Shown: positions 28,675 through 64,000 of the stretch, in pieces
Layout: the number at the start of each line of letters is the position of its first letter
Position numbering within the stretch: the stretch's first letter is position 1
NCBI GenBank assembly: GCA_037349105.1
Contig: JAYJMM010000036.1
Coordinates: forward strand, 1,276,001 to 1,340,000
DNA from: Limnomonas spitsbergensis
Lineage: Eukaryota > Chlorophyta > Chlorophyceae > Chlamydomonadales
Direction: 5' to 3'
DNA: 64,000 nt
Position numbers and translations under genes: made by a program
The notes under the pieces: model-generated
What the model saw: the letters and a program-made list of their open reading frames with translations, nothing else
Told to the model about the DNA's origin: nothing
The model's database searches: none

Positions 28675-28830
28675 TCACTTGCAGCCATTGAGAGCCAGCG
28701 AGATAATGTTGCACGTTGACAAGCACTTGTCAGACATGACGTAGCCGGGCAAGAGCCTATTGGCCGCAATGCTGCACCCTGGCTCGTCAGGCATGGCCTC
28801 CTTGACCCGCGACAAATGTTGGACGATGAA
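28675..28830 (-). pseudogene. Minus-strand coding-like fragment at the edge of the second satellite
   Basis: On the minus strand, immediately after the satellite, the frame reads FIVQHLSRVKEAMPDEPG, continues with AANRLLPGYVMSDKCLSTCN and ISLALNGCK, and then stops. The composition is that of ordinary globular protein, unlike the repeat. On the opposite side of the array another minus-strand coding-like fragment occurs (41,480-41,565), so the satellite may separate pieces of one gene. No family assigned. Confidence 0.35.
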
Positions 28831-40800: not shown

Positions 40801-41459
40801 CCGTCAACAGTGGGTAGTAGTTGATTACCGTCAACAGTGGGTAGTAGTTGATTACTGTCAACAGTGGGTAGTAGTTGATTACTACCGTCAACAGTGGGCA
40901 GTAGTTGATTACCGTCAACAGTGGGTAGTAGTTGATTACCGTCAACAGTGGGCAGTAGTTGATTACCGTCAACAGTGGGCAGTAGTTGATTACTACCGTC
41001 AACAGTGGGTAGTAGTTGATTACTACCGTCAACAGTGGGCAGTAGTTGATTACCGTCAACAGTGGGTAGTAGTTGATTACCGTCAACAGTGGGCAGTAGT
41101 TGATTACCGTCAACAGTGGGTAGTAGTTGATTACCGTCAACAGTGGGCAGTAGTTGATTACCGTCAACAGTGGGTAGTAGTTGATTACTACCGTCAACAG
41201 TGGGTAGTAGTTGATTACCGTCAACAGTGGGTAGTAGTTGATTACTACCGTCAACAGTGGGTAGTAGTTGATTACCGTCAACAGTGGGCAGTAGTTGATT
41301 ACCGTCAACAGTGGGTAGTAGTTGATTACCGTCAACAGTGGGTAGTAGTTGATTACCGTCAACAGTGGGTAGTAGTTGATTACCGTCAACAGTGGGCAGT
41401 AGTTGATTACCGTCAACAGTGGGTAGTAGTTGATTACCGTCAACAGTGGGCAGTAGTTG
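28831..41459. repeat. 27/30-bp satellite array
   Basis: Roughly 455 tandem units of GATTACCGTCAACAGTGGGT plus AGTAGTT (27 bp), mixed with 30-bp units carrying an extra ACT (GATTACTACCGTCAAC). The main single-base variant is GGGTAG/GGGCAG. Longer-range order exists: the marker GGGTATTAG recurs at 39,401, 39,725 and 40,076 (324 and 351 bp apart), and the block with GAGCAGTAGATGATTAATAC recurs near 32,328, 33,524 and 39,260. Periods of 27 and 30 bp keep frames open on both strands, producing long ORFs such as NYYPLLTVI repeats on the minus strand. I do not call these genes. The stretch 33.6-39.1 kb has many 1-bp indels. Confidence 0.95.
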
Positions 41460-44454: not shown

Positions 44455-45109
44455 ATGGCAGGCATACTCTCTACATTATATGTGAGACTGGTTGTGCGGT
44501 GCTGTGTTTTAGCTGCGGCTACTCAGGCGATGTCATTGTGCTGACGATTACTTTCTCCACAGGGCCTGGGGGGTATCTTCTCCCTACCGTTCACGGCTAT
44601 GCAGCTATCCATATCGGTAATGCGAGGCCGAGAACCCATTTCATCTGCGGTAAGGCAGTGCATCACACGAGACCTGGTTGATGTGACCAAGTCCGGCTTT
44701 TCTGAACTTCCTGCACATTGACGTGACAGGTTCAGAGGCTAGGCTTGAGTTTGGATGCTCGGCGTGAAGGGCCTCTGATTTGGTTTCATGCCGCTGGCAT
44801 CGGTAAGCGAGAGTCGTTAGTCCCAAAGCGTTTAAATTTGCATGACTTGTTGCAAATCTTCGCCTCTGACTAACTGCACACCGCGCAGTGGAATGCTCTG
44901 TAGCGCTTCCAGTCTTGTTCAGATCACTGCTGGTAAGAGCTGCGAAGAAGTCGATCGAAAGTTGGCTATACGAAACCCTGATCAAACCAACGACCTCTGT
45001 GCTCACCGAGTGGCTTCTTTCGCAGGAATACAACGACAAGGTCATGATTCTGCTCACTACCGAATCTGTGGAAGCTTACTTGCTTCTGAAAGAGACTCTC
45101 CCTGGCAGG
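44455..45109 (+). CDS. Exons 1-5: N-terminal half of the Kdo transferase-like domain
   Basis: Exon 1 encodes MAGILSTLY. Exon 2 gives a hydrophobic segment, GIFSLPFTAM, then MRGREP, the usual membrane-associated start of KdtA. Exon 3 has RLGLSL and PLIWFHAAGI. The GTG codon for V63 is split across intron 3, and exon 4 continues ECSVALPVLFRSLL. Exon 5 has VMILLTTESVEAYLLLKETL. The normal family signature is HAxSxGE, so the Gly before Glu is Val here. Introns are 80-93 bp. Intron 4 was inferred because removing it (GTAAGA...TTCTTTCGCAG) brings the two conserved blocks to their usual distance. Confidence 0.8.
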
Positions 45110-48100
45110 GTGAGCGGTTGTACCCTCAAGAGTATGCAGCCCGACTGCAAATTGCTTAGCAGCACTCGGTGATGAATCACTTCCCTCTACATAGCTCTTA
45201 TCTCTCTAATGGAAGTGCTGGATGCTTAGAGAATTCCCTGTGCCTCGCCTGTCCAGTTTAGCACCAGCATGTCCCCCATCATCTTGCAACAGGTCACAGT
45301 GCAGCTGACGCCCATGGACACCCCGGTGTGCATCACACTCTTCATGCGCAAGTGGCGGCCGCAAGTGGGGCTTATAATGGTGGGCATGTGCAACTTGGGT
45401 TGCTAGAGGCTAGTCATCCCATGCAAGACGATAAATGGAATGCAGACTTAAATCCAATCTGCTGCAATCTCGACTTAAAGGTAGATAACAGTAGGCAAGT
45501 GGCTAAATGCTCATAAATGCTTGTGAGATGATCATTTTCTACCTGAGTACCATGCTTGTGCCATCACCACCCTCCCTTCCCCTTGTCCGCCCTTTGCAGG
45601 ACTCCCCGCTGCATCCGAATCTAGTCTTGGTAGCTGCACAGTACGGCGTGCGCATGGCGCTGCTCAATGGCCGCCTCGCGGGCGATGATGTCCTGAGCTG
45701 GCACTCTTTGAAAGCGCGGCGTGCGCGACTGTCCAACGTTATCTCCAAGTTTGACTTGATAGTCCCTGCCAGTGATATGGTGCGCTGATTGGAGCATGGG
45801 GGCAGCAGGGCAATGAAGACTTGTTGCATGGGCAAGTTTCATGTTATCATGTAGATAACGTCAGGGAGGGACTGAAGAGTGCAGTGCTATGCGGAATGCT
45901 CATTAACAGGTGGCAATGAGAATTGTGAAGGACATGAGTGCAGCTGGGGGCACGAGCAACGCTATTTGTTGGCATGGCACAAGGCACTGTGCTGTTCCTC
46001 GCAAAAGGCTGGTAAAATTTGCCTCCCTCCCTCCCGGTCTCTGCCCCACAGGACTTTGGACACTTCTGCCTCTTTGGGGCAGGCATGAAACAGATGCCAG
46101 GCTGGTGCGGTGACCTGACACACAGCGCATCGCTGGGTGCTGGCACCTGGCACCTCTCTAAGCCGAAGCCCGAGGCGGTTAAGCAGCTTCGCACAGGTAA
46201 AAGAGTTGGGCATGCAGCTGCTGGCCCCAAGAGCTGCTTGGCCATCTTCTTGCATAGCTGTTGACTTAAGATCCCAGTTCCACACAGTTGGAGATGGGTG
46301 ATGAGCCACCTGAAGCAGGTCTGCTGGGATCTGCAATGCTGTGACTGCGGTTGTGTGCAGACTGTCTGCCCCCACTCTGCCAGCCGACCCCTGAGAATCA
46401 CATACAAACTTGGCACCGCTCGCATGCTCAGCTTTGACGCCCGCACCCCTCCTCCTAGAACCAACACTCTCGCATCATTACCCGACAAGACCCCGCTAAT
46501 CTGCGTTTCTCTCTCCTCCAATAGGCTTGGGTCGCAGGCCGACGTGGATAGCCGCGCACACGCAGCCAGGCGAGGAGAGCTTTGTGGGGCGCGTGCACCA
46601 CCGGCTGGCGACTCAAGTGCCCGGCCTGCGCACGATTATGGTGCCGGTGGATGGCGGGCGCTGCGCTGGCATCATGATGGCGCTGCGGGAGCAGCATGGG
46701 CTCAGCGTGGACATGTGGAGGGGACCTAATGGCACCTGTGAGTGACGCTGAGCTCTGCAGACGTACTTGCGCATTTATCTGAATGCCAGTGTTTTGCATT
46801 TTGTCTGCCTTGCAATATGGCTAATGAAAAGTAATAACGGTTCCTTCATGACGGTGCCGTAGTTAAGGTATAAGCTTTCTTGCGCTTAACTTGCTGCTTC
46901 ATTTTCGCCACAATGACCCGAGAGGATTCGTCGGTGTAGGCACAGCTCCTGCACAGGATTTGTCCGGTATCTGAACAAGAGGCTGGCCTTAGCTACCCTC
47001 TGGTGCAGCTGTGAAACTGTTTGACTAACTCTCCGCACTTGCTGTGAGACTGCTGTGAAACCCTGAACCCCAAACTCGAAATCCTTAACTCCTCACTTGC
47101 GTGAAACTCTTGGACTAACGCTCCTCACCGTCCCCTCGCTTGCTCTCCATCTGTCTGCGCAGACATTGCCGATGTCATCCTGGTGGACGACGCGTCCCAG
47201 CTGCCTCTTCTGTACACCGTGTGCGAGACGGTGCTTCTGGCGAACAGCAGCCTGCTGGACAGCGAGGCTGCCAATGCGGGGGAGATGCGCACGCTGCGCG
47301 GCTGCGACCTCCTCGCGGCCCCGGCGGTGTCCAGCTGTGCAGTGCTGGTCGGCGCGCACGGCGGCGCGGCCAGCGCGATGGCTGAAGACCTCAACGCGGC
47401 GGCGGTGGCTGCGGCCGAGGACGTTGCGGCGGCTGTCCGCAGCGCAGGTGCGAGGGTGCAAGAGGCGATGCTTGGGGTTGCTGGTGATTGATAATGATAC
47501 TTGGCGTTATGATGGAGGCGCCAGAGTTAGTATTGTATAGGGTACTGACGCACCAGTACCTGCACCGTTTGCCAGTCTCAGCATGCATAATGAAATTTTG
47601 TGATGAACCAGCAACAGACCTCCTCCCCGGGGCGAAGGGAAGTGATTGTGATGACCGGCATCGTTGACACTGTGAGTGCACCAGTGCTGCATACCGGTAT
47701 GATACCAGTGTGCATAATGTTTATCACAACCAGTGCGACTGCATATAGTTAATGCAGAGTTCATTTTTGTGTGACTGAACTACATTTCTGCTCAACTCCG
47801 GCTGGATGCCCCATGTGTGGCCAGTTCTGCTGCATTGGCCGCAAGCCGTAGGCCGGTCCAGGTTAAGTCCCAATTGGGCATTTGGCGAATGCGGGGCTGC
47901 CTGCGAAATGTAAATTTGTACCGGAAAAAATAAGCAGTGGTTACACCGGTACCTGTGCTTAATGAATAGTGAATCATTATCATGATTTTCAGGGCAGCGG
48001 CACATCCTACAGCACTGTGAGGTGTGTACCAGTGCAAGCATAGGGGTAATGATAAGCCAGAAGGATTAATACCAGTATCCTGGCGCCGGGGTTCATGAAA

Positions 48101-51100
48101 ATTTGAGGCGCAAGCCTGCAAACATGCCTCTCTTAACTAGCACATGACCCATGCATTAAATGTGATGCCCTGCTGGGCTGAAAAAAACACACAAATACGT
48201 CACAAAACATCATCAACAATTCGGTTCCCATGAAGCTCACCTGACTTCCAGGCGAGCTTTGCTCTGCCAGCGCCTCGCTTCTCCCCAATTCGCATGGTCG
48301 CATGCCATAGCGCCCATGCTCGTGCATTACACCCCACATGCAAGCCATGCACCATGCACGCGCACAATCGCCGACGCCTGCGCCATGCGTCCCGACAGGT
48401 AGCGCCCCGGACGACGACCGGCAGGAGACGCCTGTCTCCCTGCAGGAGGACTGCAGGAGGCAACAGCTGCAGCAGCGCACCATGTTCAGCACCGGCCGCT
48501 TTGCGGTCCAGCGGCCACGGCTCGGCTTGGATCTCATGGCCGAGCCTTCCACACATGCCGCCTCGGCCCCAGTGACGCCCAGCGGGGCTGGCAATGGCAG
48601 CGCCCCGCTCGCCGCGCCTTGGCTGTACAACGCACACCATCCGCTGCCCCAAGGCCACACGCCCCCAGTGGACACACGCAGCCGCCGCAGTGTCGCGCCC
48701 GCCGCTGGCGGCAACGGACACAGCAGCAGGCTTGCCCGCTCAAGCGCCCCCTCTGCAATCTGGCACTCACACTCGATTTCGGAGCAGTGGGGCGTCGACC
48801 TGCCTGGCTTTGCTGCCTCTTACTCGCCGGGGGGCGCCGGGCAGGAGGACAGGGCGGCTGCGGCGGTCGCCACCGCTGCTGAGCGTCACCTGGGACACGC
48901 GTTCCTGACGCGGCAGCAGTCTGGCCGACCGCTGGGAAGCCTTTGGACAGTGATTTCTGGCAGCGTCTCCCGGTGAGTCATTGAGAAGTGCTTGCGCCAA
49001 TGCTGCCAAACTACATAAGATACAATTTTGCATCGCAAAACTTCCGCTTATATTAAAACGAAGTTTAAGAAGACTTGCTGCCTGTCTGGATAAGGTCATG
49101 AATAGTATTTGCCGCACCATTTGTTGCATTCCAGGTACCAGTGCCTGTTGTTATGTCATTTTGTATACAATTTGTTGCATACCGTTGATACCGGTATGTC
49201 CAGTACAATTTGTTGCCAGATGTCAACTGTCTGTTGAATTATGTGTTACCGTATGTGTATCAGTACTGGTAGCTACAGTTGATATTCCAGTTTTTGCATG
49301 TCCTCAATTTGAACCACCTGTCGTGCGGTGCCTTATTTCCAGAGGGAGCTCCCCGTCAGTTGCCCCGGCTCCCCCCCTTCAAGTGGCTGACTTCTGGTCA
49401 CCCAGCCACCACGCCCGCCTGTCTCAGCTGCCGCCTTTAGACATGACCCGCTCGTCCACGCACCCCGGCGACGCTGCCACGTGCTCCCTCGATGACGCCG
49501 TGCAGACGCGCCGCGCCAGTGCCACGAGTAGCGCGGCCCGTCGTACGGTCAACTTCTCAGAGCACGCCAGCAACGAACAGCAGCAGGCGCCAGCCTCAGG
49601 ACGGGCGGCGGCTCTATGCCCCGCACCCGAGACCGCCCCGGTCGCAGCCGCAGCCTTTTTCGATGCACCGCCTGCTACAGGGCTGGAGTTGCAGGAGGCC
49701 AAGCAGGTTGTAGCCTGCACGGTTCCCGAATCGCCCAGCTCCAACGCCAGCGGCCGCAGCGACGAGTCCTTGAATCGCCTCCGGTCCATGATGTGCCTGC
49801 CGGAGTTGCCTAGCACTGAGGACGAGCTCTTCGCAGAAGTCGTCGCTGCTGCTGCTGCTGCAAGCGGTTCAACTACTTCATTCTCAAGCTGCCACGAGGT
49901 CCTCGCCTCGTCGCCTCAATCTCGACGCTTGGTGAGCCCGGGAGCAGGCCCTCTAGACCTCATCCCTACCTCCTCCTGCGTCCAAGACCCTCTGGAAACA
50001 AAAAGTGGTGCCTCTCACGATTTGTTTTGCATTGTATCGAGCTTGATTCTTCTGGGCCCAAAGTCGGGGCCCAAAGATGTGATGTACGGCTCATCAAATG
50101 GTCACAGCGTGGATGCGGCCTGGGCCCATGCCGCACTGTTTCCTTAGCCCTCACTTCCCTAGTCCCCTGCGGGGCGTACTTTTCTTTTGTGTGCTCGTGA
50201 GGGCAAAGCTTCGTGACAAAAGCGTGGTTGTGCTGGTGTCAATCTCCCCCCCAAATCGAGCTGGAAATCAAGAGCATGAGGCTGAACGGGTACTCGTGTC
50301 AATCAAGCTGTCTTCAAACTTAACCTTGCCCTGTCCCAACCCCTCTGCATCCGATTGCGCCTGTTTGTGTGCCCGAGTCCCTTCTCCCGCTAGTGCTGGA
50401 ATGCCTGAGCTGTACTGCTCGACGGCTCACCTCAAAACCTCCTCCACCTCCTCCTCGCTCCTGCAGGCCAACAGCGGAAGCATGCAAAGCGATGGGACAG
50501 GCAGCAGCTGCGCCGCATCGGACATAGTTCAGCCGCTCGAGGTCTCTCAGCGCGCAGCAGCCATGCGCAGGCAGAGCTCGGGCGCCCTTGCCACGGCCAG
50601 CGGCTTGTTCTGGGGCCCGCGTCGCCCGCCAGATGGCTGCTGCACCATGGCCGAGGCGGAGGGCCTTCCGGTGGCCAGAGCCATGCGCTTTCACCGGCAG
50701 TCATTTGGCAGGTGGCTCGACATTGATACCAGCCCGCCAGAGTCGCCCAGCTCGGTGCCCCGCGATCAGCAGCACATCATTCAGCATATCATACAGAGCA
50801 GGTGGGTGTGTGCTGGAGGGGGGGGGGGACGAGGCCATTGGAGGTGATCACGCTTCTAGCTGGCATGGGAGACAATCAACTTGTGGAGACAGTCAGCAGC
50901 CCCATGCGGCATGAGGGCAACAGTGAGCATGCAAGCGTGTGTGCTCCATAACATGGGACGCACCCATGCCACATGAGGGTAATAGTGAGCTTGCAAGCGC
51001 GTGTGCTTCATGTCATGGGATGCCCTCATGCAGCATCGTGGCAAAAGCAAGTTTGCATGATGTTTTTTCACCCAGCCGTCCACACACTCACTTTATCTGA

Positions 51101-54100
51101 GTCATGAAGTGAAGCATACTGTTGACTGCCAAGTGTGCAGCAACTAATTCATCGGAATGTGTGAAGCATGCAAATGGTCTATCCGCAGTCTCATACCGGT
51201 ACTCTCATTCTTATACTATGTTTGTGCTGCCCTTATGCTCCTTAAATGCTGCTTGTGATGCACATAACATTCTGCCTGTGCTTCACTTGTGCCTGAGCTG
51301 CACTTGTGCTTCTTACTGGTATACCGTATGCTGCTTGTGCTGCACGTTATATTCTGCTTGTGCTGTACATGTGCTTGTACTGCACTCGTTCTTCTTACAT
51401 GCTGCTAGTGCTGCACACATTATACTCTGCTTGTGATTCATCCATCTGCTCCACTGACAGGGCCTTCGACTGTGAATGCAACAGGTCCAACTCCCCGTCC
51501 TCGCAGAACGGCCCCTCACGTGGAGGAAGCGTTGGCGGGGCCACCTCCCTCGATCAGGTTGAGTCAGGCAGTGGCGACAGCCCCTCTCTGTCGCCTATGG
51601 CGCCGCCCGTTTCTCCGTCCTGTCACCGCCTGTCGACAGTCTCGTCCGATGCGGCCTTGGATGCAGCTGTGGTCATACTGAGACAGGACCAGAAGTTTGC
51701 TGATGCTGATGGTGGCAACGCCTGGTGCACCGCTGCGGCAGCAGTGGCGGGGGTCAAAAGCATCGATGAGTCGGAATCTGCCTCGGTTCTTGCCCCCGCT
51801 AAGTGTCACACTGCTTCGATCACAGCTTGTGTGAGTGCAGAAGATTCTCTTAACCTTGCCACGTCACAGCTTAACGCCACTAAGATGCCGCCGCTGTCCC
51901 CGTGCAAACCCGGTGCTGTCCCGTTTTTGTCTACGTGGAAGTCCGTGTCCGCGATTGAGCCCCCGAATGCCGACCTGCGCCCGTCGGCAAGTATGGGCGC
52001 AGCCGGCAGCGAAGCGAGCCTGCGATCCCTGACCCGGCCACCCGAGATCCAGGACCAGATTCAGGTGCTGCCGGAGCAGCAGCAGAGAGGGCTTCGGAGC
52101 TTCTTGTCGCTGCCCACGAAGATGCAGATCGACCGCAGGACAGGCCCGGCCACAAACCCCACTGTTGACAGGGGCGAGGCAGACAGTTCGACGGACCACC
52201 GTTGGATGCCGGTCGACTCAAGCGGAGACCTGGAATCCAGCGGGGACATCGACGGGGATGGCGCACCGGATGCGGCGGGCATCAACCTCGCGGCTACCGC
52301 CTCGGCGGTCTCGCTGGTGACAATGAAGGAAGCTGTCACGCCCCCAGCTGCAAGCCTGGCAGACACTGGCTGCGGCCCTGATGAGGATGCAGTGCCCAGC
52401 AAGCCGCAAGATGTGGAACGCTCTACCCTCAAGGGCTTTGGCTCTGTGGAGGGCCTCGCGTGTGCCCAGCCCCGCCCCGCTCCAGCGCCCCGCCCCGGGC
52501 CGGCGCGATTGGGCAGGGATTGCAGCCGGCGAGGCCTGCCGCCGGCATTGCCGGCGCATGCCACACCTCCTAGCTGGGCTTGCAACGTGGAGACAGCACC
52601 GAGCAGCTGGTCGGCCTCGGCCATCGGCACAAACTCTGAGCTCAACAGCTCGGAAGTGTCCCTGCGGTCCTCGAGCCCGGCGCTGATCTCCCCAACGGCA
52701 CCGTGGTGCGGGGACACTCCGCCTCCACCTTCTCCTCCCGGGCCCATCGCCGGAGCTGACGCCGGCTTCATCTTCCCAGTGACCAGACAGCTGCACCGCT
52801 CCACCTCAGCGGCCGCTTCGGCTGCCAACATGCTGACGACCACAATGAGCTGGACGAAGCCGGGGACTGCTGGAGCGCCTTTCTCTGGGAACGTGCTGCG
52901 CCACCATGCCACCATGCCTCAAGTGAGTTTTCTAGCAGCATCAGTTACTGGTATGTCTTTAAAATATGTCTGTAAATACCGGTACAGTCTTAAAACACCG
53001 TACTCGGTCTAGCTACATTGAAGGAGAGAAAATACATCCTGCACGTTGCTAGCGTTGGGGCTCATAACAGGGGTAGGACAGGGCTAAGATGACCGCATTC
53101 ACTGAAGATATGGAGGGCTTTGTCACTATGCGCGTGACTGACAAAAGAGGGGATGTTTATGTACATATTCATGTAAGTTAGAGACGCAGTCTAAGACTAG
53201 GATGTTTCCGCTGCACATTCCTGCTTGTCCTGCTGTCATTTTTTCATGCAGTCTCTCCGCCCATGACGTCATCTTCTTCATCCCCCCCCCCTCCCACTCA
53301 CACCATGTGTCATCTTCTGCTTTCTCTCCTTGAAACGATCCCAATAACCTATAGAGGACGTTTACTACATCTGGATCCTTTGGTCTAACTGGAAGGAACG
53401 CTACCCCCCCCACACACACACACAAACACCATATGTCGTTTTCTCCTTGCCCCCCCTCCCACCCACACATTTGGCCCTGTCCCTCCAGGCCATGCTGCTG
53501 TCGCTCCTGGACGAGGCAGAAGAGGCTCCTGACACCCCGCGATCATGCCAGCAGGTAGGCATTTCAAACGACAAAGCTGCTGTAGTCCTTCAGTTATTTT
53601 TTTTCCAACGGGACAGTTGGGCGCCCACGCGGCCGAGCCATTTTGAGCAGGGCCCAGACGTGTAACGTCATTGACGGGTGATTTCTGAATCCAGGGCTTC
53701 GTGTTTCTGCCTCATTGCAACATGGATTCCCTGGATACTGGGATTCCCTGGATACTGGGAACCAGGAGCATTTGCCTTCCCAGCATCAATCAATACTTTG
53801 CATGTAAGCACGATTCATAATTGGGAACGAGCCCTGGTGAAACGTGCCCCTGTGTTCGCGTACCAGAACACGCTCTGAGTGATGCAGCGGCAGGTAGTTT
53901 CTCTTAACCCTCTGAGGCGGCCCTGAGAGCTGAGAATGTGGCCTCTGCAGCGCCCGTACGACCCTTTCGCCGAGGAGGAGGAGGATCTGGGTATCCCCGA
54001 GACGCCGACCTCGCGCATGAGCTGTGCCTCGCCTTTTGCCACGGGTGCCGTCTACGACCGGCCGTCACCGTTCCGCCTGTCCAGGACTGGCAGCCACGTC

Positions 54101-57100
54101 AGCGGATACGACGCCGAGGAAGTAGCGCACAGCGCTGCATCGGTGGCAACAGCAGCAGCTTCCTTGTACCAATACCAGGCCGAACGGGCCGTGCAGAGAG
54201 GCCTGACCTCTCCCTCGCCGTCCACCTTTTCCCGGAGGACGTCTGCCTCGGGCCTCCGGCACGCCAGGTCGGACTCCAGGGGCTCCATGGAGCGTCGTGC
54301 TAGCGCGCACCCCTGTGTGAGTACCAAAGAGGACGCCGACGCAGACAGCAGCGGCAGCGGCGGAGCGGTGCCGGACACGCCGACGTCGATGATGAGCAAC
54401 AGCTCCCCGTTTGCCGGCTCGGTTCGCGACCGGCCCTGCCCGTTCCGTGTATCGAACAGCGGCGGCATTGTACCGTCTTCTGCCGTTGCTGCTTGCCAGG
54501 AAGCGGCCCCAGTACGCGCCAGCATTGCCAGCTCGCCCGGTAGCTTAGTGTCCTACCCAAGGCAGGGCCTGGACCCTGCTGGCTCCTACCTGATGCCAAC
54601 GTCCGGCCCAACGCTGCCGGACGCGACGGACCGCTTAGTCCGGCAAGAGAGCATGGAGCTGTGGTGCCGGAGGTCGGGCGCTGAAAGGGGCTCTGACCCA
54701 GATCGGTATGCTCAACCGCCATCACCCCGCGTCTCTAAGGTGCGGAGCGAGTCTGGGGAGAACCGAAAGGGGGGAGATGGTGGGAGCCGCAAGAGAGGCG
54801 GGTGTGAGGGTTGTGGAAACAGTGCAGCATTTGGTCTGTGCAGTTGTCAGGTACCGTAGTGGCTGGAGCAATGTGCGGTTTGCCTATATTTCGTTGTGTA
54901 GTACCGGTAGGAACTGAACCGGTAATTGGATATGTTTTCTGTTTGCACTGCCTCACATTTTTTTTGAAAGAGGCTGTTGGATAGGTGTTGTAGCAACATT
55001 GACCGCTCGCCGAGCACAGTGCCTGCGAATACAGTAGCTTGCTACTCTGCTTCCCCGTTTATTATTTCGTGTGGCCCAGTGGCTGTTTGTGGACTGCATG
55101 CTCATGCATAGTATGCTCTGCTGCGCAGGCCAGCCCCAAGGAGTGGGACCCGCTGCCCGCAAACGCCATGAGCCCCGCTGCGTCTCAAAGCGCAGCCCCC
55201 GCGACGATCACCGTCGCACCCGTCCACATGCACCTGCGCCCGCTGCTGCCCGCGCAGCACGCCAGCGCCAGCGGCGCTGCTGCCGGAGGCCTCTCCAACG
55301 CTTCGCCGGGCAGGCGCCTGGTCCGCCAAATGAGCAGCACGCCTGCGGCGGTGTCCTCAGTGGCCCAGGTGCAAATACAGGCTCCCATGTCCTCCCCGCG
55401 GCGAGCTCGTCGCAACAGATCCTACGGCGGCAATATCGTGGGAGCCTCCCGTTTTGCCCCTGGCAAGCAGTCGATGGACAGTCCGCGTCAGCAGGACATG
55501 CCACCAGGCAATGGCGACAGCAGCGGCACCGAGGCAGACGCAGCGGCGGCCCAGGCCCAGGCCAGCGCGCCTAGTCTGTTCCGCTCAATCTCAGCCCCAG
55601 GCAGCGCTCTGTTGCAGTACCTACAGGCAATGGCGGAGGCTGCTACCGAGGTAGATCCCTCGCACGACCAGGATGCCCCGGCGGCAGCACCAGTAGTACC
55701 AGCTCGCGCACTTCCCCGTCAACTAGACATCAGTGAGCTGCTTCCGTCGCCGCGCAGGCAGCGCGACCAGCCGCCTCTGACGCCGCGCAAGCAGCGGTCG
55801 GGCTCACCGGAGCGTCCGCTGCCCATCCCGGCGGCGCTCAAGCAGCCGCCAATGTCCCCTCACAAGTCGATGACGCTCTCGCGGTGCGCATCGATGGCCG
55901 GCTCGACGACGCCGGCGCCGCTGGACTGCACCACCGCCGCTTGGCATGAGCTGAGCCTCCTCAGGGCGGGGAGTTTCGGCCAAGGCAGGCACGTTGCCAG
56001 TGTCGGGGTGGGATCCATGCCACAGGGGCTATTGTGCATCGGCACCCCCGGTGGCGCGACCCCGCAGGGCACCGGGTCGAATGCTGATCAGCCTGACCGA
56101 GTGACCTCGCCGACTGCGTCCTCAGCGCTCCGCCGCTCGCCCTTCCCCTCCCAGAGCCCCTTCGCCGACTACGCGGCGGCGTGTTCTGCGGCGGCGGCCG
56201 TGATAGTGGCTTCGCCGCACACCGCTGGCTGTAGTCTCGGTGAGATTGCTGCCGAGATCGCAGTGGCGGCGGTGGCTGGCCTTGAGGCAGCGAACGCGGC
56301 CCACGGCGGCGAGCGCCCGCCAGTGTCTCCCCGCTCCTCAATGACGGACACTGCGGACTCGTGCCGCCCCTCACCGTACCGGAAGCTCCTCATGGACGTG
56401 GATGCCGAGGAGCCCCAAGCAATGCCAGCATCCGCCAAGGCGAACCGCATGACAGACGAAATGGGAACCCACAATTATCACGCCGAGGCGGGCCTACACG
56501 CCACACAACCTGGAACGCTGCCGCGCTACCTCGCCGCGCCCTTCTCGGTAATTATCGCCTCTTCACCGATGTCCGCCAGGGGTGGCGGGCCCGGGATGAG
56601 CGCCGCAAGCTCGCCTTACTGCAAGCTCAACTTTGACAACACGGAGGTCCCCGGCAGCAGCAGCGGCGCGTGCTGCCAGAAGCAGCTGTCGTGGGGCGAC
56701 AGCAACCCAGCCAGCCCCGTCAGCCGCAGCCCCAGCGGGCTGGAGGGCCTAGAGCATTTGACGCTCAAGACTCTGAGGCTGCCCCGCAGCCCAAGCTGCA
56801 TGTCGCCTGCGCCTACTGCGACTGCAGCAGCAGCAGCCCCCTCAGGTGGCAGCTGCATCACCGCCGCTGCCTTGCCTCATGGCGCCATCAGCGAGAGGTC
56901 CCCACTGAGCCTGCAGCAGAAAGTGCTGCTCCGCCAGGCACACCACCAGGTCGCGAGCGGGCCGCAGGAGTCGACGTTGTTGTCCTGTGCCCAGCAGGCC
57001 GTCTCGCATCCGCAGGGCAACAGCTCCCCGCGATCGTCGCTGTTCCAGGAGCTGCAGGGCATCAAGGAGCAGCTCATGGTGAGTGGAGGCCCTCTGGGGG

Positions 57101-59180
57101 GATGTACAATATCTGCTTACAAGTATAATGATGAATACCGTACCAGTAGTGCCTAAATGTATCCCTCAAAAAACAGCTCATGGAGAGTGAGGACAGGGGG
57201 GGGGAGGTACAGTATCTGCCATGCAAGGGAGATGTGAGAGAGCTGTTGGGCGGCAGTGACGGTTGGGCTGTTGGGCTGGGTCTGTTTGGTGTTTGGTGTC
57301 AGTGTCTGGGTGGGTGGTGTGGATGGTTGATGTGTGGATGACTGTGCCTATCTTAACGGCTTGTGTACTTGCCGCCTCACAGGGCGTTGAAGGTCTGCTC
57401 GTCAAGCAGAGGGAGGCTCTGGCAGAGCCACCGCCCGCAGTGGCTCCGGCCAGCCCGCTCAGCCCAGCCCCCGCTGATATCCGAGCTGCCGCCGGTGACG
57501 TCGGCAATGGGGAGGTAGCTTTGGAGCTGAGTGCCATGCGCCAACAGATGTCGGCAATGGCCGAGATGATGATGCAACAGAGCGCGCAGATGCACGAGCT
57601 CAAGACGATGGTCGCCAACCAGCAGCACATGCGGCAGCTGGGGGAATCCCACAAGGCTCTCGACAGCAGCTGCGGAAGCCGCGTCGGAGGCTCCTTGCAA
57701 CCGCAGCGTGCGGCCAGGGTCAACGACGCCGGAACCGCTGGACAGCAACAGTGTACGCTGCAGGAAGGCGATGGTGCCGCCGCAGCAACAGCAGCCGCAG
57801 GCAGCGACCTCTCGCCAAACCTTTGGGGTAGCCGCAGCAGCCGCTCTCTCTGCGGGGATGACGAGCATCTGCTGCTGATTCCTCCAGGGTCTTCCCCCGT
57901 GGTGGCCGCCGCCGCCACTGTTGCGCCGCTCGGCTCGCGGCCGCGCCGCCGACCTTGTGCCCGGCAGCACCGCGTCTCGTACGACACAGCCGACGACCAG
58001 CTGTACATCCCAGCGGGCAGTATGCTTGCTCCTGGCAGCGGCGGCCAGGTGGTTGCGGCTGGACCATCGAGCTCTGAGATCGAAGTGGACATGGCGGCCG
58101 CCACAAGCCCATGTGGCTACAATACAGCGCCCGGGGATGGCGACAGCATCGGCTTGCAAAATAGCTGCCTGCTGTCCTCCCTAACGCAGAGTGGCGACAG
58201 ATCGCCGCTGTCAGTCCAACCTGTGGCCTCTGCGGAGCGCGGCCAGTGCGGCATTGATTGTCATGACGCGCCTCTGGCGGTGGCGGCGAGGCACCCCACG
58301 CTGGCAAGCGCCTCCGGCCGCGGCGAGGCAGGAGCAGGTGGAGGGCAGCCTTCCAGGCTGGCGGCGGCCGCCGGCCCGCAGCCGCGCAACCCGCACCTGG
58401 ACAAGCTTCGGGACCAGGGCTCGGCTTCCAAGCTTGCAACAGCCGCCAGCAGCAACAGCTCGCCGGCCAAACGCCCGGACGCCGTCGCTGCTGAAAGTCC
58501 GTTTGTTTCGGACCTGTCGGGCAGCGTGTCTTCAAAGGGGATGCAGCTACAGACGGTGGCCAGCCATGTCAATCATCAGCAGCCTCATGCAGCCTCCTCG
58601 GATCTGAGCCCTGCCGGATCTAGTGGAGGCGAGACTGCACTCTGGGACTCCTCGCCTAGCTCAGCCAGGTTAGTGCTCACACACACCCTTGTGTCCCTCC
58701 ACGCGCCCTCCTGAGGCCATCATCATCATCATCATCATCATGCCTGAAAAGTGTGTGCACTTTTAGCTTGGATTGCACACCCTGTTTGTGACGTGCATGT
58801 GCCTACCCTGTCTACCCACTGCTATCCCTGGAACTGTCCTTTCACTCTCAACTCTCTGCCCACTGAAGCCACTAGCCCACTGTCGCACCTCCCCGCCCCC
58901 CCTGCACAGATTGTACCGCGGCGGCTACCTGATGCCAGCTAGCCAGCTGCCGCGCGGCGCCATTGGCCCTGCGGTCTGGCGCGTGGGCGATGAGACGGAG
59001 CTGGTGGCTGCATTGGCCACGTTGCTGCGGGACCCACTGGAGCGCCGCTCCCGCGGACACGCAGCGGCTCAGGCTGCAGCCAAGCTTGCCATGGGCCTCG
59101 TCAGCACGGTTTGGAATGTCCTGGATGATGCAGTGGTGACACCTGCGCTGCATGCGTATGTGGAAAGGCAGCTGAGCTAG
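44455..59180 (+). CDS. Giant Kdo transferase (KdtA/WaaA)-like protein, 19 exons
   Basis: Exons: 44455-44481, 44563-44649, 44730-44802, 44889-44932, 45026-45109, 45293-45379, 45600-45779, 46052-46196, 46525-46737, 47163-47447, 48399-48972, 49343-49931, 50467-50801, 51461-52922, 53489-53554, 53951-54739, 55129-57078, 57383-58668, 58910-59180. All introns are GT-AG with matching phases, and the sum is 8,547 nt (2,848 aa). The start was chosen because a nine-codon exon joins in phase 0 to the hydrophobic N-terminal segment typical of KdtA. Residues 1-408 and about 2760-2848 align with the family: PLIWFHAAGIVE (E64 at the catalytic-base position), LLTTES, TPMDTP, ALLNGRL, WIAAHTQPGEE, LLYTV. KdtA transfers Kdo from CMP-Kdo, and plants carry a homologue. 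Residues 409-2759 are a disordered insertion. Family assignment is by motif order only. Confidence 0.8.
45293..47447 (+). CDS. Exons 6-10: remainder of the conserved Kdo transferase-like region
   Basis: Exon 6: TPMDTPVCITLFMRKWRPQV ending GLIM. Exon 7: DSPLHPN in place of the family's ETELWPN, then MALLNGRLAG and KFDLIVPASD. Exon 8: WCGDLTHSA where VTGNLKFD is usual. Exon 9: RRPTWIAAHTQPGEESF and LRTIMVPVDGGRC, at the position of STHEGEE and LVPRHPER. Exon 10: VILVDDASQLPLLYTV, then GCDLLAAPAVSSCAVLVGAH where GGHNPLEPA..GKPVLFGPH is usual. The order and spacing fit the family well, but several substrate-binding residues are replaced. Intron length rises from 220 to 425 bp along this part. Confidence 0.8.
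48136..48196 (+). repeat. Short dispersed repeat, copy 3 (in intron 10)
   Basis: ACTAGCACATGACCCATGCA then TTAAATGTGATGCCCTGCTG and GGCTGAAAAAAACACACAAAT, related to copies at 24,905 (+) and 43,637 (-). It sits in the 951-bp intron between exons 10 and 11. Confidence 0.5.
48399..48972 (+). CDS. Exon 11: start of the disordered insertion
   Basis: Residues 410-599, joined in phase 1 to exon 10 after a 951-bp intron. Ser/Pro/Gln/Arg-rich with no domain recognised (e.g. RQETPVSLQEDCRRQQLQQR). Ends at CG|GTGAGT in phase 2. Confidence 0.75.
49343..49931 (+). CDS. Exon 12: disordered insertion
   Basis: Residues 601-796. Ser/Ala-rich, with SP dipeptides, an acidic stretch LPSTEDELFAEVV near the end, and a short poly-Ala run from a (GCT)n tract. 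The phase matches both neighbours. Confidence 0.75.
50467..50801 (+). CDS. Exon 13: disordered insertion with short conserved-looking motif
   Basis: Residues 797-907. Contains MRFHRQSFGRWLDIDTSPPE and SPSSVPRDQQHIIQHIIQ. The aromatic/acidic LDIDTSPPESP segment stands out from the low-complexity background. Confidence 0.75.
50901..51060. repeat. ~62-bp tandem repeat in intron 13
   Basis: About 2.6 copies of CCCATGCGGCATGAGGGCAA plus CAGTGAGCATGCAAGCGTGT and a GTGCTCCATAACATGGGACG-type segment. Starts at 50,901, 50,963 and about 51,025. Confidence 0.7.
51230..51445. repeat. Degenerate TGCTGCTTGTGCTGCAC repeat in intron 13
   Basis: Words such as TGCTGCTTGTGCTGCAC and CTGCTTGTG recur irregularly up to the exon 14 acceptor. 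The upstream reading frame here is a by-product and not part of exon 14. Confidence 0.5.
51461..52922 (+). CDS. Exon 14: long disordered insertion
   Basis: Residues 909-1395. Begins AFDCECNRSNSPSSQNGPS. Rich in Ser, Pro and Ala with many SP pairs, and no globular domain recognised. Ends at CAA|GTGAGT in phase 0. Confidence 0.75.
53489..53554 (+). CDS. Exon 15: 22-codon microexon
   Basis: Encodes AMLLSLLDEAEEAPDTPRSC plus QQ, bounded by CCCTCCAG and GTAGGC. It is exactly 66 nt and phase 0 on both sides, so it can be included or skipped without breaking the frame. It has a short amphipathic leucine-rich stretch. Confidence 0.65.
53611..53668 (+). repeat. Dispersed repeat (ACAGTTGGGCGCCCACGCGG), copy 2 in intron 15
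   Basis: ACAGTTGGGCGCCCACGCGG then CCGAGCCATTTTGAGCAGGG and a GTGTAACGTCATTGAC end. Matches 43,471-43,531 with a few small differences. Confidence 0.75.
53725..53761. repeat. 17-bp tandem duplication in intron 15
   Basis: ATTCCCTGGATACTGGG occurs twice in a row. Confidence 0.7.
53951..54739 (+). CDS. Exon 16: insertion exon with a duplicated TPTSxMS motif
   Basis: Residues 1418-1680. Two related segments about 125 residues apart: near residue 1432, IPETPTSRMSCASPF then VYDRPSPFRLS; near residue 1557, VPDTPTSMMSNSSPF then VRDRPCPFRVS. The shared pattern is [IV]P[ED]TPTSxMSxxSPF...VxDRPxPFR[LV]S. Phase 0 at both ends. Confidence 0.8.
55129..57078 (+). CDS. Exon 17: insertion exon with clustered Ser/Thr-Pro sites
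   Basis: Residues 1681-2330, the longest exon. Around residues 1881-1927 basic-flanked sites cluster: LPSPRRQR, LTPRKQRSGSPERP, MSPHKS. These match the general (S/T)-P-x-(K/R) pattern of proline-directed kinases. Two similar motifs occur: RPSPYRKLLMDVDAEEP (near 2093) and ASSPYCKLNFDNTEVP (near 2173). No enzyme domain recognised. Confidence 0.8.
57383..58668 (+). CDS. Exon 18: insertion exon with a Met/Gln-rich predicted coiled coil
   Basis: Residues 2331-2758. Near 2374-2418 the sequence ELSAMRQQMSAMAEMMMQQS and following residues to about MRQLGE form a likely amphipathic helix or coiled coil. The rest is Ser/Gly/Ala-rich. Ends AG|GTTAGT in phase 2. Confidence 0.75.
58718..58741. repeat. 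(CAT)n microsatellite in intron 18
   Basis: About eight uninterrupted CAT units within the intron between exons 18 and 19. Confidence 0.9.
58910..59180 (+). CDS. Exon 19: C-terminal end of the Kdo transferase-like domain
   Basis: Encodes LYRGGYLMPASQLPRGAIGP, then AVWRVGDETELVAALATLLR and the final helices (DPLERRSRGHAAAQAA ... VWNVLDD), ending ERQLS and a stop. The pattern of a short beta-strand, an acidic DxxEL helix cap, LL.DP..R, and a terminal helix matches the C-terminus of KdtA, so the fold resumes after the large insertion. Confidence 0.8.
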
Positions 59181-59784: not shown

Positions 59785-60420
59785 TGTCACGGTATAATGC
59801 AGTATACGTGCCAAAACCGTAGGGACTGCTACTGCGGTCCCGGAGGCTTTGCAGCTTCCCTGCGGAGCCCCCCTTTTAGGGCTAGAAGCCCAGCTTCCCA
59901 CTTTCGGGAAGATCTGAGGCCAAGATTTCCCATACCTTAGTAATAAGGGCTTGCCGGGACATTGTATCCCGGCTTGCCCACTGTCCCTTACTTCGTTCCT
60001 TTTAAATGGACAGGCCTCTATTTGTAAACCGCACCGGCTAGATCTCGGAGACCTACCCAGTAAAGAGCAACAACGCCAGTACCACTCAACTAGGCAAGCC
60101 TAGGACAGCACTACAGCGTCTTAGCAGCCCTAAAACCCCAAGCGAGACTCCCAGCCCGACTCAGGCCTACGCCTGCAGTCTACGGCTACGGTCTCTCCTG
60201 CGCGCGGTAAGTGACTCAGCGACCCCCCAGATTAGCTATCTGGAAGGTCAGCTTTCTAGCCAAGCCTAGTGCTAAGACTCCGCGATTGTCATCTAGAAGT
60301 TCCAACCACATCTTAACGCGCTGCGCATTCGCGGCCAGTGTGTAGACACTGAGCCCGCCCGTAGGCGTCCGCCACACTGTGGGGAAGAAGTCCGCCACGG
60401 ACCCGAAGCTATCCTCACGT
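59785..60420 (+). mobile_element. Retroelement leader/LTR-like repeat, copy 2
   Basis: Begins TGTCACGGTATAATGCAGTA and matches 26,126-26,742 in the same orientation, with substitutions and small indels. Here it precedes a long Gag-like coding region by about 700 bp, as expected for the 5' LTR or leader of a retroelement. No primer-binding site was recognised just after it. Confidence 0.65.
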
Positions 60421-61127: not shown

Positions 61128-62324
61128 ATGGAACCAGGGGAGGATCCCATGACACCCATAAATGCGGCTGTGGCCGAGGAAGCTATGCAAATTGCCCTTG
61201 GATTGTCCGGAGATGACTATGCAGTGGTGGGGGAGAACAAGACCCTGGCGGTCGACGGTTCTCCTGCCTTGGATGCGGGTATGGTGCATGTTGAAGTGAC
61301 ACGCAGGGGTATCGGACGAGGCGGCATTGCGCGCATTCCACCTGGGCTGAGCCAGGAGGAGGAGCAGTGGCCAGTGCCTGCCGATGGATCCCTGGACCCG
61401 ACCTCGGAGCCACCCACTGTGAGGTCTTGGACCGGTGGTGTTGGAGAGGGTGGCGGGCCAGCACGACCTCCAGATGATCTGCCTGAACAAGCAGGAGTGG
61501 AGGGAGTCGATGCTGAGCCGCACCCCCAGGCCCCTGTCAAGAGGGAAGCCAGGGAATCCCAGCCTGAGCCCGCAGTGATCAGGGGGGAAAGAGGAGCGGT
61601 CCAGCCAACAGCGGTCAAGATGGAGCTGACAAGATCCATCGTACATCAGATCCAAAGGGAGTCGGCAGAAACAGTGGTGAGCCTGCGGGATCTGCAAAGA
61701 CGCAGCGACCCACAGGCCGTGGCGACGCCAGCCGCTCCAGTAGGGCAGCCATGGGCTGAACTGGCCGCCAAGGAGGAGCCGCCAGATCCGCGCAGCGGGA
61801 TGCAAGCGCCAAGGGGAATGCCACCAAGGCCGGAGCTGCATAGGATGAAGCAGACAGGACCATCCCGTATCCCAGCAGGGGAAACAACCGAAGCGTCGAC
61901 ATACGGCACACCCCTGTCCAGGTTCCCTGCCAACGCAAGCGGGCAAAGGCAGAAGGCTGTGGCCGGACACGACAGCAAGGAAACGAGGGGCGATGGCCAA
62001 GCTGACAGCCTCTACGGGTACTTCAGCAACCCGGCGTGGACGCCTATCCCAGGGGAGCGGTGCCCAGAGGTGGGGAGCACTCGGGGAGCATTGTCCAGCC
62101 AGATCCGGCGGTGCAACCAGCGGGAGAGCTTCTACCGATCGGATGGGCGGGCATCCTGCAGTGGGCAGCACGGCTGTGGCAGCAGGTGTGCTCCAGGTGC
62201 TTCGCCCACCTCAGTGATCAGACCCGGGTCATCGAGGAGTTCCGAAGCCACCACCTGGCGGAATGGGCAACAAAGGCCATCATGGGCATCCCCCACACGG
62301 GGCAAGACAGGGCGACGCGGCTAG
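61128..62324 (+). CDS. Retroelement Gag-like ORF, N-terminal part
   Basis: The first good ATG gives MEPGEDPMTPINAAVAEEAM. The protein is polar and rich in Pro, Glu and Arg, without a recognised domain up to about SLYGYFSNPAWTPIPGE (near 62,055). Beyond that the frame turns into a Ser/Arg/Cys-rich, non-protein-like stretch and stops at 62,324, while the frame starting at 62,006 becomes clearly coding. I therefore take the true reading to switch frames between about 62,006 and 62,100. The LTR-like repeat upstream supports a mobile-element origin. Confidence 0.5.
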   Translation: MEPGEDPMTPINAAVAEEAMQIALGLSGDDYAVVGENKTLAVDGSPALDAGMVHVEVTRRGIGRGGIARIPPGLSQEEEQWPVPADGSLDPTSEPPTVRSWTGGVGEGGGPARPPDDLPEQAGVEGVDAEPHPQAPVKREARESQPEPAVIRGERGAVQPTAVKMELTRSIVHQIQRESAETVVSLRDLQRRSDPQAVATPAAPVGQPWAELAAKEEPPDPRSGMQAPRGMPPRPELHRMKQTGPSRIPAGETTEASTYGTPLSRFPANASGQRQKAVAGHDSKETRGDGQADSLYGYFSNPAWTPIPGERCPEVGSTRGALSSQIRRCNQRESFYRSDGRASCSGQHGCGSRCAPGASPTSVIRPGSSRSSEATTWRNGQQRPSWASPTRGKTGRRG

Positions 62325-64000
62325 CAGCCCTACGCAGGGTGTCCAAGGGAGCAACAGGGCCAGAGGCGGCCCTAGCGGTTAAGGCCTTCGCGAACGAATG
62401 GTGCAACGGCGCGGCAGGGGATCAGGAGGAACCCGAACCCGAACAAGAGGAAGAGCTCCAAGATTGGGAAGGATTCGAGGCGTCCAGGCTGCAGCCAGAC
62501 GATCGCAGGGAGGTGCGAAATTGGCAGGAGCAGACAGAAGGAGCGGCCACAGCCACCAGCCAAGCCAGATGGGAACGTTTGGAGGCCAGCAGTGAGCCCA
62601 GCCTCAGGAACCAGCGGCTGGATGTAGGGCGAAGGCCCAGGCCAAGCAGCCCCGCAGCCAGCGAGCAGCCAAGGACAACCAGCATGCAGCTAGCCAGGGC
62701 AGCAGAGCAGGGCTCAGCGCCTAGAAGGGCCAGCAGGCAAGAGTCCCAGGGTATGATGCGCATCGTGGACAACAAGGAACACAGCAGCCAAGAGGGCCAG
62801 GTGGACGACATTGCTGAATTCCTGCGGGGCCAAGCAGCCCAACAGGGGAACAGGACGGACAGGAGGAGCCATTGCCCCAGCCAAGAAATGAAGATCGTGC
62901 AGGAAATCGAGCCAGCAAGTACCACTGGGAGAGGCGGCCCGCAAAGACAGGAAAGCAGGGACGATGACCTGTCAGTTTCCGAGGCAAGGGAGTACACTGG
63001 AGGGTCGCAGCCAAGCAGGCCCAGCAGTCATCAGCCAGGAAGGCAGGCAGAGTCAGAGGAGAATAGAAACCAAGAGCCCGCGATGCAGCCTTCAGGGGGC
63101 GGCAGCCGCCCCAGAAGCATGGCAAGCGAGAGGCCATCTGGGGACGGGCAGCCCCAGCGAAGTGCAGACCGCAGAGACCAAAGGGGCCAGCGCAGGCGAA
63201 GCCCAGCCAGAGGCGGAGGTGGCGGATATGGCTCGGACCCCAGCCAGTTAGACTCGGAGGACACGGAGGGACGCAGCCCAGGCTCCATCAGGGAATCCAT
63301 GAGACAAAAAAGGGAAAGGATAGCCCTGGGGCAGGCGGAGACGCACATACAGCTGCAGAAACAGATGATCCTGCAGCTGGCCGGGGAAACCCGGTTCACC
63401 AAGATCCCCACCATCCAAGGCAACGTGCCAGTATTGGACATGTCCCAGCCAGGGGCGGTCGCAGCCAGACAGTACTGCCAGGCTTGCAGCTCATGGGGCT
63501 CGCACAACCGCCTGGCTTTATCTGACGAGGCACCAGCCCTGGCAGTGGTGGCAGGAGAGATCGCGGGGTCTTGCCAGTCTCCCTCCGCCATGGCTCTGTT
63601 GGCCCGCTCATTGGTGGCCATGTGGACCGCCAAGCCAGCCTGCGTGGCGCCACTGGTGGTAGCCATACGATCAGCGCCCCAAGGAGACAAAGCCTCCCGG
63701 GAGGTTGAGCGGATCCAGGAGGCGTGGACGCCTCCGGTGGTCGGGCCGCCAACTGTGCTCACCCTGTGGATCAGGGTGGTGCAGAAGGAGGTAGGCAAGC
63801 CAACTTCAGACAAGAGGGCAGCTGTCACCGGCCTCAAGATGGGAGTCAAAACCACCTTGGACCCGGGCGTCAAGCCGGAGGAAACTGTGGAGGCATTCGC
63901 CCACAGAGTCATGTCCACGGCGGAGCTGCTGCAGATCTCCAGGGACGCGGTTGACCACTTCGGCAGGAGGCATTCGGTGGCCCACATGTTCTATGAAGGG
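62006..64000 (+). CDS. Retroelement Gag-like ORF, continuation (open at window end)
   Basis: An uninterrupted frame from just after a TGA at 62,003-62,005 to the last base of the window. It reads GWAGILQWAARLWQQVCSRC, then AIMGIPHTGQDRATRLAALR, an acidic linker EEPEPEQEEELQDWEGFEAS, a long Gln/Arg/Ser-rich region, and a folded-looking C-terminal part with KTTLDPGVKPEETVEAFAHR and STAELLQISRDAVDHF. The last part resembles a capsid-type Gag helix bundle in character, but no zinc knuckle, protease or reverse transcriptase is reached within the window. Frame -1 relative to the upstream ORF. Truncated by the window end. Confidence 0.5.

What the first reader, a model, noticed from the sequence alone, without database searches (positions are those of the whole stretch)
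44455..59180. Kdo transferase-like fold split by a ~2,350-residue disordered insertion
Seen: nineteen exons with consistent phases give one 2,848-codon frame. The first ~408 residues and the last ~89 carry the KdtA/WaaA motif order, and exons 11-18 lie between them. Known: KdtA proteins are usually about 420-450 residues. Inference: the insertion enters a loop in the C-terminal nucleotide-sugar-binding half, just before the final beta-strand and helix (AVWRVGDETEL). The fold must close around an intrinsically disordered loop five times its own size. This could be a regulatory or scaffolding adaptation, and I know of no described example.
Basis: partly seen in the sequence, partly recalled or inferred. 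Interest (0 to 1): 0.9.

Follow-up and report, generated by a model that had tools for sequence, protein, structure and literature searches.

The report
Degenerate sugar-transferase fold with giant loop
A green alga carries two copies of a gene whose protein looks like a bacterial Kdo sugar transferase that has lost key active-site residues and is split near its end by a conserved, mostly floppy loop of about 2,350 residues, which suggests an old enzyme fold reused as a scaffold.

Summary
Nineteen GT-AG exons (44455-59180, +) give one 2,848-codon frame. Residues 5-396 match positions 5-375 of a bacterial KdtA profile and exon 19 resumes at 374 (0 of 5,000 shuffled tails score as high). Two genes are very unlikely: the same genome holds a diverged paralogue with the same 19 exons and frame, dN/dS 0.10 (KdtA part), 0.31 (insert), 0.09 (tail), and Chlamydomonas eustigma a predicted 3,226-residue orthologue with a collinear 2,832-residue insert.

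Two corrections. The insert is not featureless: 18 stretches are conserved with C. eustigma, 15 of them holding a Ser/Thr-Pro. The KdtA motifs are degenerate: the PRH arginine, the GGHNxLE glutamate and the second Glu of ELWP are gone in all five algal models compared, and the paralogue has Asp for the presumed catalytic Glu.

Best reading: a pseudo-glycosyltransferase, or a transferase of changed specificity, clamping a long phospho-motif-rich scaffold loop. Architecture is shown at sequence level; function is inferred. There is no transcript evidence.

The parts
44455..47447 (+). exons 1-10 (44455-44481, 44563-44649, 44730-44802, 44889-44932, 45026-45109, 45293-45379, 45600-45779, 46052-46196, 46525-46737, 47163-47447): KdtA-like N-terminal domain and most of the C-terminal domain, about residues 1-410
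   Evidence: model; PF04413 E=1.6e-25; bacterial KdtA profile positions 5-375; dN/dS 0.098 against the paralogue
48399..48972 (+). exon 11, start of the insert; SAPVTPSG stretch shared with C. eustigma
   Evidence: paralogue exon +21 nt
49343..49931 (+). exon 12 of the insert; DFWSP motif shared with C. eustigma and (as EFWSP) Chlamydomonas sp. UWO241
   Evidence: paralogue exon -6 nt
50467..50801 (+). exon 13 of the insert; RQS[FL]xxWL[DE] motif shared by three species; dN/dS 0.12
   Evidence: paralogue exon +45 nt
51461..52922 (+). exon 14 of the insert, the least constrained part (dN/dS 0.45)
   Evidence: the paralogue acceptor is ambiguous
53489..53554 (+). exon 15 of the insert: most of the HATMPQAMLLSLLDEAEEAPDTPRSCQ stretch (starts in exon 14)
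53951..54739 (+). exon 16 of the insert: two copies of the P[DE]TPTSxMSxxSPFAxxxVxDRPxPFR motif (residues 1433 and 1558), both present in C. eustigma; dN/dS 0.19
   Evidence: paralogue exon -39 nt
55129..57078 (+). exon 17 of the insert: conserved stretches RRNRSYGG...ASRFAP, LFRSISAP, TPRKQR..SPERPLPIPA, SPFADYAAACSAAAAVIVASP, RPSPYRKL, SPYCKLNF, GLEGLEHLTLKTLRLP
   Evidence: 645 codons compared with the paralogue, dN/dS 0.30; paralogue exon +45 nt
57383..58668 (+). exon 18 of the insert: SLFQELQGIKEQLMGVEGLLVKQR (spans 17/18), VALELSAMRQQMSAMAEMMMQQSAQMHELK (helical by eye, not predicted), HRVSYDT
   Evidence: paralogue exon -6 nt
58910..59180 (+). exon 19: completes the KdtA-like C-terminal domain (AVWRVGDETELVAALATLLRDPLERRSRG...), stop codon
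   Evidence: profile positions 374-419 when scored alone, 0 of 5,000 shuffles, 66-76% identity to Tetradesmus, Scenedesmus and C. eustigma tails, dN/dS 0.087
47448..48398 (+). intron 10 (951 nt), between the KdtA part and the insert; contains one TGTAA (possible poly(A) signal, recalled), about the number I would expect by chance
58669..58909 (+). intron 18, between the insert and the KdtA tail; no TGTAA

Best explanation
Shown at sequence level: one gene, present in two diverged copies in its genome, encodes a protein of about 2,850 residues. (That the alga is chlorophycean is inferred from its nearest relatives.) Its GT-B core is related to KdtA/WaaA (CAZy GT30, recalled label). The core is interrupted between the helix after the 'GPHxxxF' region and the last strand and helix of the C-terminal domain by a conserved insert of about 2,350 residues. 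Inferred: the core no longer binds CMP-Kdo as KdtA does, because many residues nearly invariant in bacteria are replaced, while other residues became invariant among the algae. It has become a pseudo-glycosyltransferase or a transferase of changed specificity. The two ends of the insert are held together by the fold, so the insert projects as a closed loop. That loop carries a fixed series of short, mostly Ser/Thr-Pro-bearing stretches and, by eye, at least two helices, and most likely acts as a phosphorylation-controlled scaffold. Where it acts is unknown; mitochondria is a guess from the plant KDTA.
For: Single gene and architecture. C. eustigma orthologue. Paralogue with the same exons and frame. 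Selection: dN/dS 0.098 / 0.314 / 0.087 with dS 0.68 / 0.80 / 0.95. Degeneration: of 37 columns with one residue in >=76 of 80 bacteria, the window protein keeps 17 of 36 covered, C. eustigma 13 of 27, UWO241 19 of 36, Haematococcus 21 of 36; the five database proteins that seeded the bacterial set keep 33, 37, 37, 34 and 36 of 37 (not an independent control). Specific losses; E64 to D in the paralogue. New constraint: of 256 columns covered by four algae 78 are invariant, and in 25 of these the algal residue is seen in <=8 of 80 bacteria, e.g. around MPGWC.D. Tree (40 of the 80 loci used): algal stem 2.17 changes per column, tips 0.19-0.60. Insert: 784 identities in 2,205 aligned columns with C. 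eustigma, score 1,199 against at most 0.5 in 20 shuffles. The 18 stretches defined with C. eustigma are 376 of 451 identical to the paralogue, the rest 1,068 of 1,898. 68 S/TP sites against 45.1 in shuffles, maximum of 1,000 shuffles 66; S/T kept at 52 of 68 S/TP against 239 of 379 other S/T, Fisher p=0.04. A Haematococcus homologue folds as GT-B (most 10-residue blocks from 31 to 340 at pLDDT 88 or more), best PDB match WaaA 2xci, E=5.5e-16; its extension 406-669 is mostly below 50.
Against: No transcript, protein size or location is known. The window copy keeps the presumed catalytic Glu (profile 64; role recalled), and profile columns 250 (E) and 279 (R) are kept in all algal copies. LpxC-like sequence in the same genome suggests that a lipid A-type pathway may persist, so Kdo transfer is not excluded. 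Plant KDTA sequences were not compared, so some 'degenerate' residues may be older than these algae. The bacterial set was fetched with patterns over two of the motifs, which biases columns 56-64 and 132-140. S/TP sites are not clearly enriched in C. eustigma (73 against 56.9, shuffle maximum 77) or UWO241 (21 against 17.1, maximum 31). The criterion for the 18 stretches (9 of 15 identical) had no shuffle control of its own; shuffles reached 12 of 20 against 19 of 20 in the real alignment, so the weakest stretches may be chance. The window insert was not folded; its disorder is judged by composition and by analogy, and the helices by eye.
Confidence: 0.55

Rival explanations
1. An active Kdo transferase, or one with a changed donor, whose giant loop only regulates or localises it. 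(Overlaps in part with the best reading.)
For: Glu at profile 64 kept in the window copy, UWO241 and Haematococcus; strong purifying selection on the core; LpxC-like matches in the genome; plant KDTA is described as a putative mitochondrial Kdo transferase (passages of PMC4404806 and PMC12168206).
Against: Loss of the PRH arginine, the GGHNxLE glutamate and the second Glu of ELWP in five algal models and the paralogue; the paralogue has Asp at profile 64.
Confidence: 0.3
2. Alternative splicing: a short KdtA-like form skips exons 11-18, and the long form is a second product. (Not exclusive of the others.)
For: An in-frame cryptic acceptor (exon would start after base 58938) joins exon 10 to exon 19 as a 488-residue protein (only AGs in about the first 90 bases of exon 19 and the regular exon 10 donor were tried).
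Against: The regular exon 10 to 19 join frameshifts to a stop at codon 416. The cryptic join removes R, G, Y and P that are invariant in four algal tails. The long frame is kept in the paralogue and in C. eustigma.
Confidence: 0.12
3. Two adjacent or nested genes, with the insert a separate gene.
For: Public models for Scenedesmus and Tetradesmus hold only low-complexity sequence plus the tail (P0003, P0004), and those for Haematococcus and UWO241 only the first half; TGTAA occurs once in intron 10 and twice each in introns 14 and 15, and the first one after the stop is at 60023.
Against: The two halves are complementary in the profile; C. eustigma is predicted as one protein across both junctions; exon phases are conserved in the paralogue; the insert reads in the same frame.
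Confidence: 0.04
4. Ordinary low-complexity expansion, common in chlorophycean proteins (recalled), without function. (Concerns the insert only.)
For: Ala/Ser/Pro-rich composition; exons 12 and 14 evolve fastest (dN/dS 0.42 and 0.45).
Against: Ordered conserved stretches; dN/dS 0.31 over the insert, 0.12 in exon 13 and 0.19 in exon 16.
Confidence: 0.2

Closest known systems
KdtA/WaaA, Kdo transferase (Pfam PF04413; PDB 2xci, 4bfc; CAZy GT30, recalled)
   Same: Order of N and C domains, GT-B fold (of a Haematococcus homologue), PF04413 match, profile covered from 5 to 375 and from 374 on once the insert is left out
   Different: Insert of about 2,350 residues; loss of residues nearly invariant in bacteria
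Plant KDTA (At5g03770)
   Same: Eukaryotic putative Kdo transferase; described as mitochondrial, without an RG-II defect in the null mutant (passages)
   Different: Sequence not fetched here; ordinary length (recalled)
C. eustigma CEUSTIGMA_g1079.t1 (P0011), a predicted protein
   Same: Same architecture, collinear insert, tail 68% identical over 106 residues
   Different: Insert 2,832 aa; the model lacks the first 112 residues

Membership tests
KdtA/WaaA Kdo transferase | PF04413 N-terminal domain above the gathering score | tested here: met
   90.2 bits against 23.9
KdtA/WaaA Kdo transferase | C-terminal domain completed towards the end of the family profile | tested here: met
   exon 19 matches profile 374-419 of 432 with controls; weak score, no Pfam/NCBIfam hit of its own
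KdtA/WaaA Kdo transferase | NCBIfam equivalog cut-offs | tested here: not met
   best 135.9 bits against a cut-off of 617 for the form without the insert; the other four models also fall short
KdtA/WaaA Kdo transferase | Catalytic Glu of the HAxSxGE motif (role recalled) | tested here: inconclusive
   Glu in the window copy (HAAGIVE), Asp in the paralogue
KdtA/WaaA Kdo transferase | ELWP acidic pair, PRH, GGHNxLE | tested here: not met
   window copy has DSPLHP, PVD, and neither the Asn nor the Glu of GGHNxLE; in bacteria each of the residues compared is present in 74-80 of 80
KdtA/WaaA Kdo transferase | Transfer of Kdo from CMP-Kdo | not testable with these tools
   no biochemistry

The most novel reading that the evidence does not exclude
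A whole algal family in which a bacterial-type LPS glycosyltransferase lost its catalysis and its fold became a clamp closing a giant, phospho-regulated scaffold loop five times its own size, kept in order since at least the split of this alga from C. eustigma and retained in two paralogues.
Probability: 0.35. Interest if true: 0.8.

Novelty: new variant of a known kind. Interest (0 to 1): 0.62.

Why it matters
If right, it shows that a GT-B fold can tolerate an insertion of over 2,000 residues in its nucleotide-sugar-binding half and be kept by selection, and it gives a concrete case of an enzyme of lipid A synthesis turned into something else in algae. Most public models of this family that I found are partial, so it may have been overlooked because gene prediction cuts it into pieces. 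The two copies in one genome make the function of each conserved stretch testable.

Tried and rejected
A pseudogene was rejected: the frame is open in both copies and dN/dS is below 1. Direct skipping of exons 11-18 gives a frameshift. Pfam scans of the insert in four pieces (exons 11-14, 15-16, 17, 18), of P0011 and of P0008 gave no domain other than PF04413 (in P0011 and P0008); only two weak matches, to Nup188_SH3-like and DUF7858, both below their cut-offs. The fold of the exon 19 tail alone had pLDDT 59 and says nothing. The PF04413 family search of the own genome missed even this gene, which is split into exons, so it is uninformative. The own-genome search with a bacterial KdtA scored two candidates only, so a third, canonical gene is not excluded. 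Two viral-contig scans found no relative. The N-terminal half was not found for Scenedesmus or Tetradesmus in any of three protein searches, so their whole architecture is not shown. Codon log-odds favour the predicted frame over the other two same-strand frames in 8 of 8 insert exons, but in exon 12 one antisense frame scores higher (0.14 against 0.09), and exons 16 and 17 have antisense frames close behind. Nothing on this algal family was seen in ten paper searches (titles and starts of abstracts only, plus passages). CMP-Kdo synthetase (PF02348), LpxB (PF02684) and LpxK (PF02606) could not be looked for in the genome: all such calls were unanswered.
Full report
Observation. The 19-exon model is in the sequence as described: exons between 44455 and 59180, all introns GT-AG, consistent phases, 2,848 codons. 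Exons 1-10 match PF04413 at E=1.6e-25. Residues 5-396 cover profile positions 5-375, and residues 2780-2817 of exon 19 cover 374-411, so the second half resumes where the first stops. The tail alone scores 11.3 bits; 0 of 5,000 shuffles reach it, the best of 226 insert windows scores 3.3 and the reversed tail -1.7. The C. eustigma tail scores 11.0, the Tetradesmus and Scenedesmus tails 7.8 and 7.1.

Is it one gene? A search of the same genome with a bacterial KdtA scored two places: this window and contig C119 (E about 0.008 each). C119 holds a paralogue of the whole gene. 18 of 18 donors and 17 of 18 acceptors map at offset 0; the exon 14 acceptor was chosen from 8 options that keep the frame open. 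Exons 1-10, 15 and 19 have equal lengths. The other insert exons differ by +21, -6, +45, +24 (exon 14, not independent), -39, +45 and -6 nt. With the first of the 8 options the paralogue reads 2,876 residues without a stop. By Nei-Gojobori, dS/dN/ratio are 0.68/0.067/0.098 for exons 1-10, 0.80/0.252/0.314 for the insert (2,258 codons, 1,445 identical residues) and 0.95/0.082/0.087 for the tail; single insert exons have dS 0.76-0.90, except exon 15 with 22 codons (0.29). Similar dS fits one duplication of the whole gene, and both copies look to be under purifying selection over insert and core.

Relatives. Three protein searches found, besides bacterial-type proteins: Haematococcus lacustris (two models, 46-47% identity over about 400 residues, then low-complexity sequence), Chlamydomonas sp. 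UWO241 (62%, then 846 residues of insert-like sequence, partial), C. eustigma (3,226 residues: core from residue 113 on, insert 2,832, tail), and tail-bearing models of 333 and 301 residues from Scenedesmus sp. and Tetradesmus obliquus. Only C. eustigma shows both halves in one model. The N-terminal half was not found for Scenedesmus and Tetradesmus. In a tree of 49 rows (4 algae, 5 database proteins, 40 of the 80 loci) the algae form one group (100/100) on a stem of 2.17, with tips of 0.19-0.60; the program warns that the joining with P0002 may be a long-branch effect.

The core is degenerate. Among 37 columns conserved in >=76 of 80 bacteria the window protein keeps 17 of 36 covered; the five database proteins that seeded the bacterial set keep 33-37 of 37. 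In order window, C. eustigma, UWO241, Haematococcus (both models alike): profile column 136 (second Glu of ELWP) is Pro in all; 275 (R of PRH) is V, A, A, S; 345 (E of GGHNxLE) is A, G, A, Q; 245 (S) is His in all; 134 (first Glu) is D, G, N, E; 64 (presumed catalytic Glu) is E in the three species whose models reach it. Of 22 columns listed for the paralogue, 20 agree with the window; 63 is Gly and 64 Asp. Columns 56-64 and 132-140 are biased by the fetching patterns. At the same time, of 78 columns invariant in the four algae 25 hold a residue found in <=8 of 80 bacteria, several of them around MPGWC.D. Loss of old invariants with gain of new ones suggests a changed function, not decay.

The insert. 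It is Ser/Ala/Pro-rich (S 14%, A 15%, P 10%) with few order-promoting residues (0.21 against 0.35 in the core). It aligns collinearly with the C. eustigma insert (784 identities in 2,205 columns; score 1,199, 20 shuffles at most 0.5). 18 stretches pass 9 of 15 identical residues; that criterion had no shuffle control, but the best 20-column window has 19 identities against 12 in shuffles. 15 of the 18 hold an S/TP in the window sequence (read). They are 376 of 451 identical to the paralogue, the rest of the insert 1,068 of 1,898. Exon 13 (0.12) and exon 16 (0.19) are the most constrained of the longer insert exons; exon 14 (0.45) and exon 12 (0.42) the least. [DE]FWSP and RQS[FL]xxWL[DE] occur in the same order in three species; in 2,000 shuffles of each of the three inserts the first occurred in 0, 2 and 0 and the second in none. 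P[DE]TPTSxMS occurs twice in both the window and C. eustigma. LFRSISAP resembles a 14-3-3 site (recalled). The window insert has 68 S/TP sites against 45.1 expected (maximum of 1,000 shuffles 66); C. eustigma 73 against 56.9 (maximum 77) and UWO241 21 against 17.1 (maximum 31) are not clearly enriched. S/T is kept in the paralogue at 52 of 68 S/TP and 239 of 379 other sites (p=0.04).

Structure. The Haematococcus model P0001, folded with 34 other sequences, has a well-predicted GT-B part; the C-terminal extension is mostly below pLDDT 50, apart from a glutamine-rich helix and a weaker one. The best PDB match is WaaA 2xci (E=5.5e-16, TM by target 0.51), and the C-terminal CMP-Kdo-binding domain 4bfc is also found. 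This model lacks the tail and most of an insert, and the window insert was not folded.

Mechanism. Shown: architecture, frame, conservation, loss of residues. Inferred: loss or change of catalysis; loop closed by the fold; scaffold controlled by phosphorylation. LpxC-like matches on two contigs (one of four over the cut-off) show that part of a lipid A-type pathway may persist, so a transferase of changed specificity remains open (confidence 0.3). Plant KDTA is described as mitochondrial and not needed for RG-II (passages), which is the only hint of a compartment.

Literature. Ten searches listed nothing that I recognised as being on this algal family; I saw titles and starts of abstracts, and subscription papers are mostly not held.

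Noticed in passing
1-22673: Tandem array of a 36-bp unit, about 630 copies at 95% match; long open frames run through part of it, as 36 is a multiple of three.
   Followed up: no
28830-41459: Second tandem array, 27-bp unit, about 463 copies at 93% match, with long open frames on both strands.
   Followed up: no
62006-64000: Open frame of 665 residues running off the window; no Pfam match at E<=1. The end looks gag-like to me (impression only).
   Followed up: partly
L083-L086 (G000 contigs C9 and C100): LpxC-like matches on two contigs, two stretches each, one of four over the cut-off. With the duplicated gene of this report this may point to an old large duplication.
   Followed up: no
L087, L088 (G000:C119): The paralogue's intron 7 is 1,581 nt against 272 nt here, a possible insertion.
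   Followed up: no
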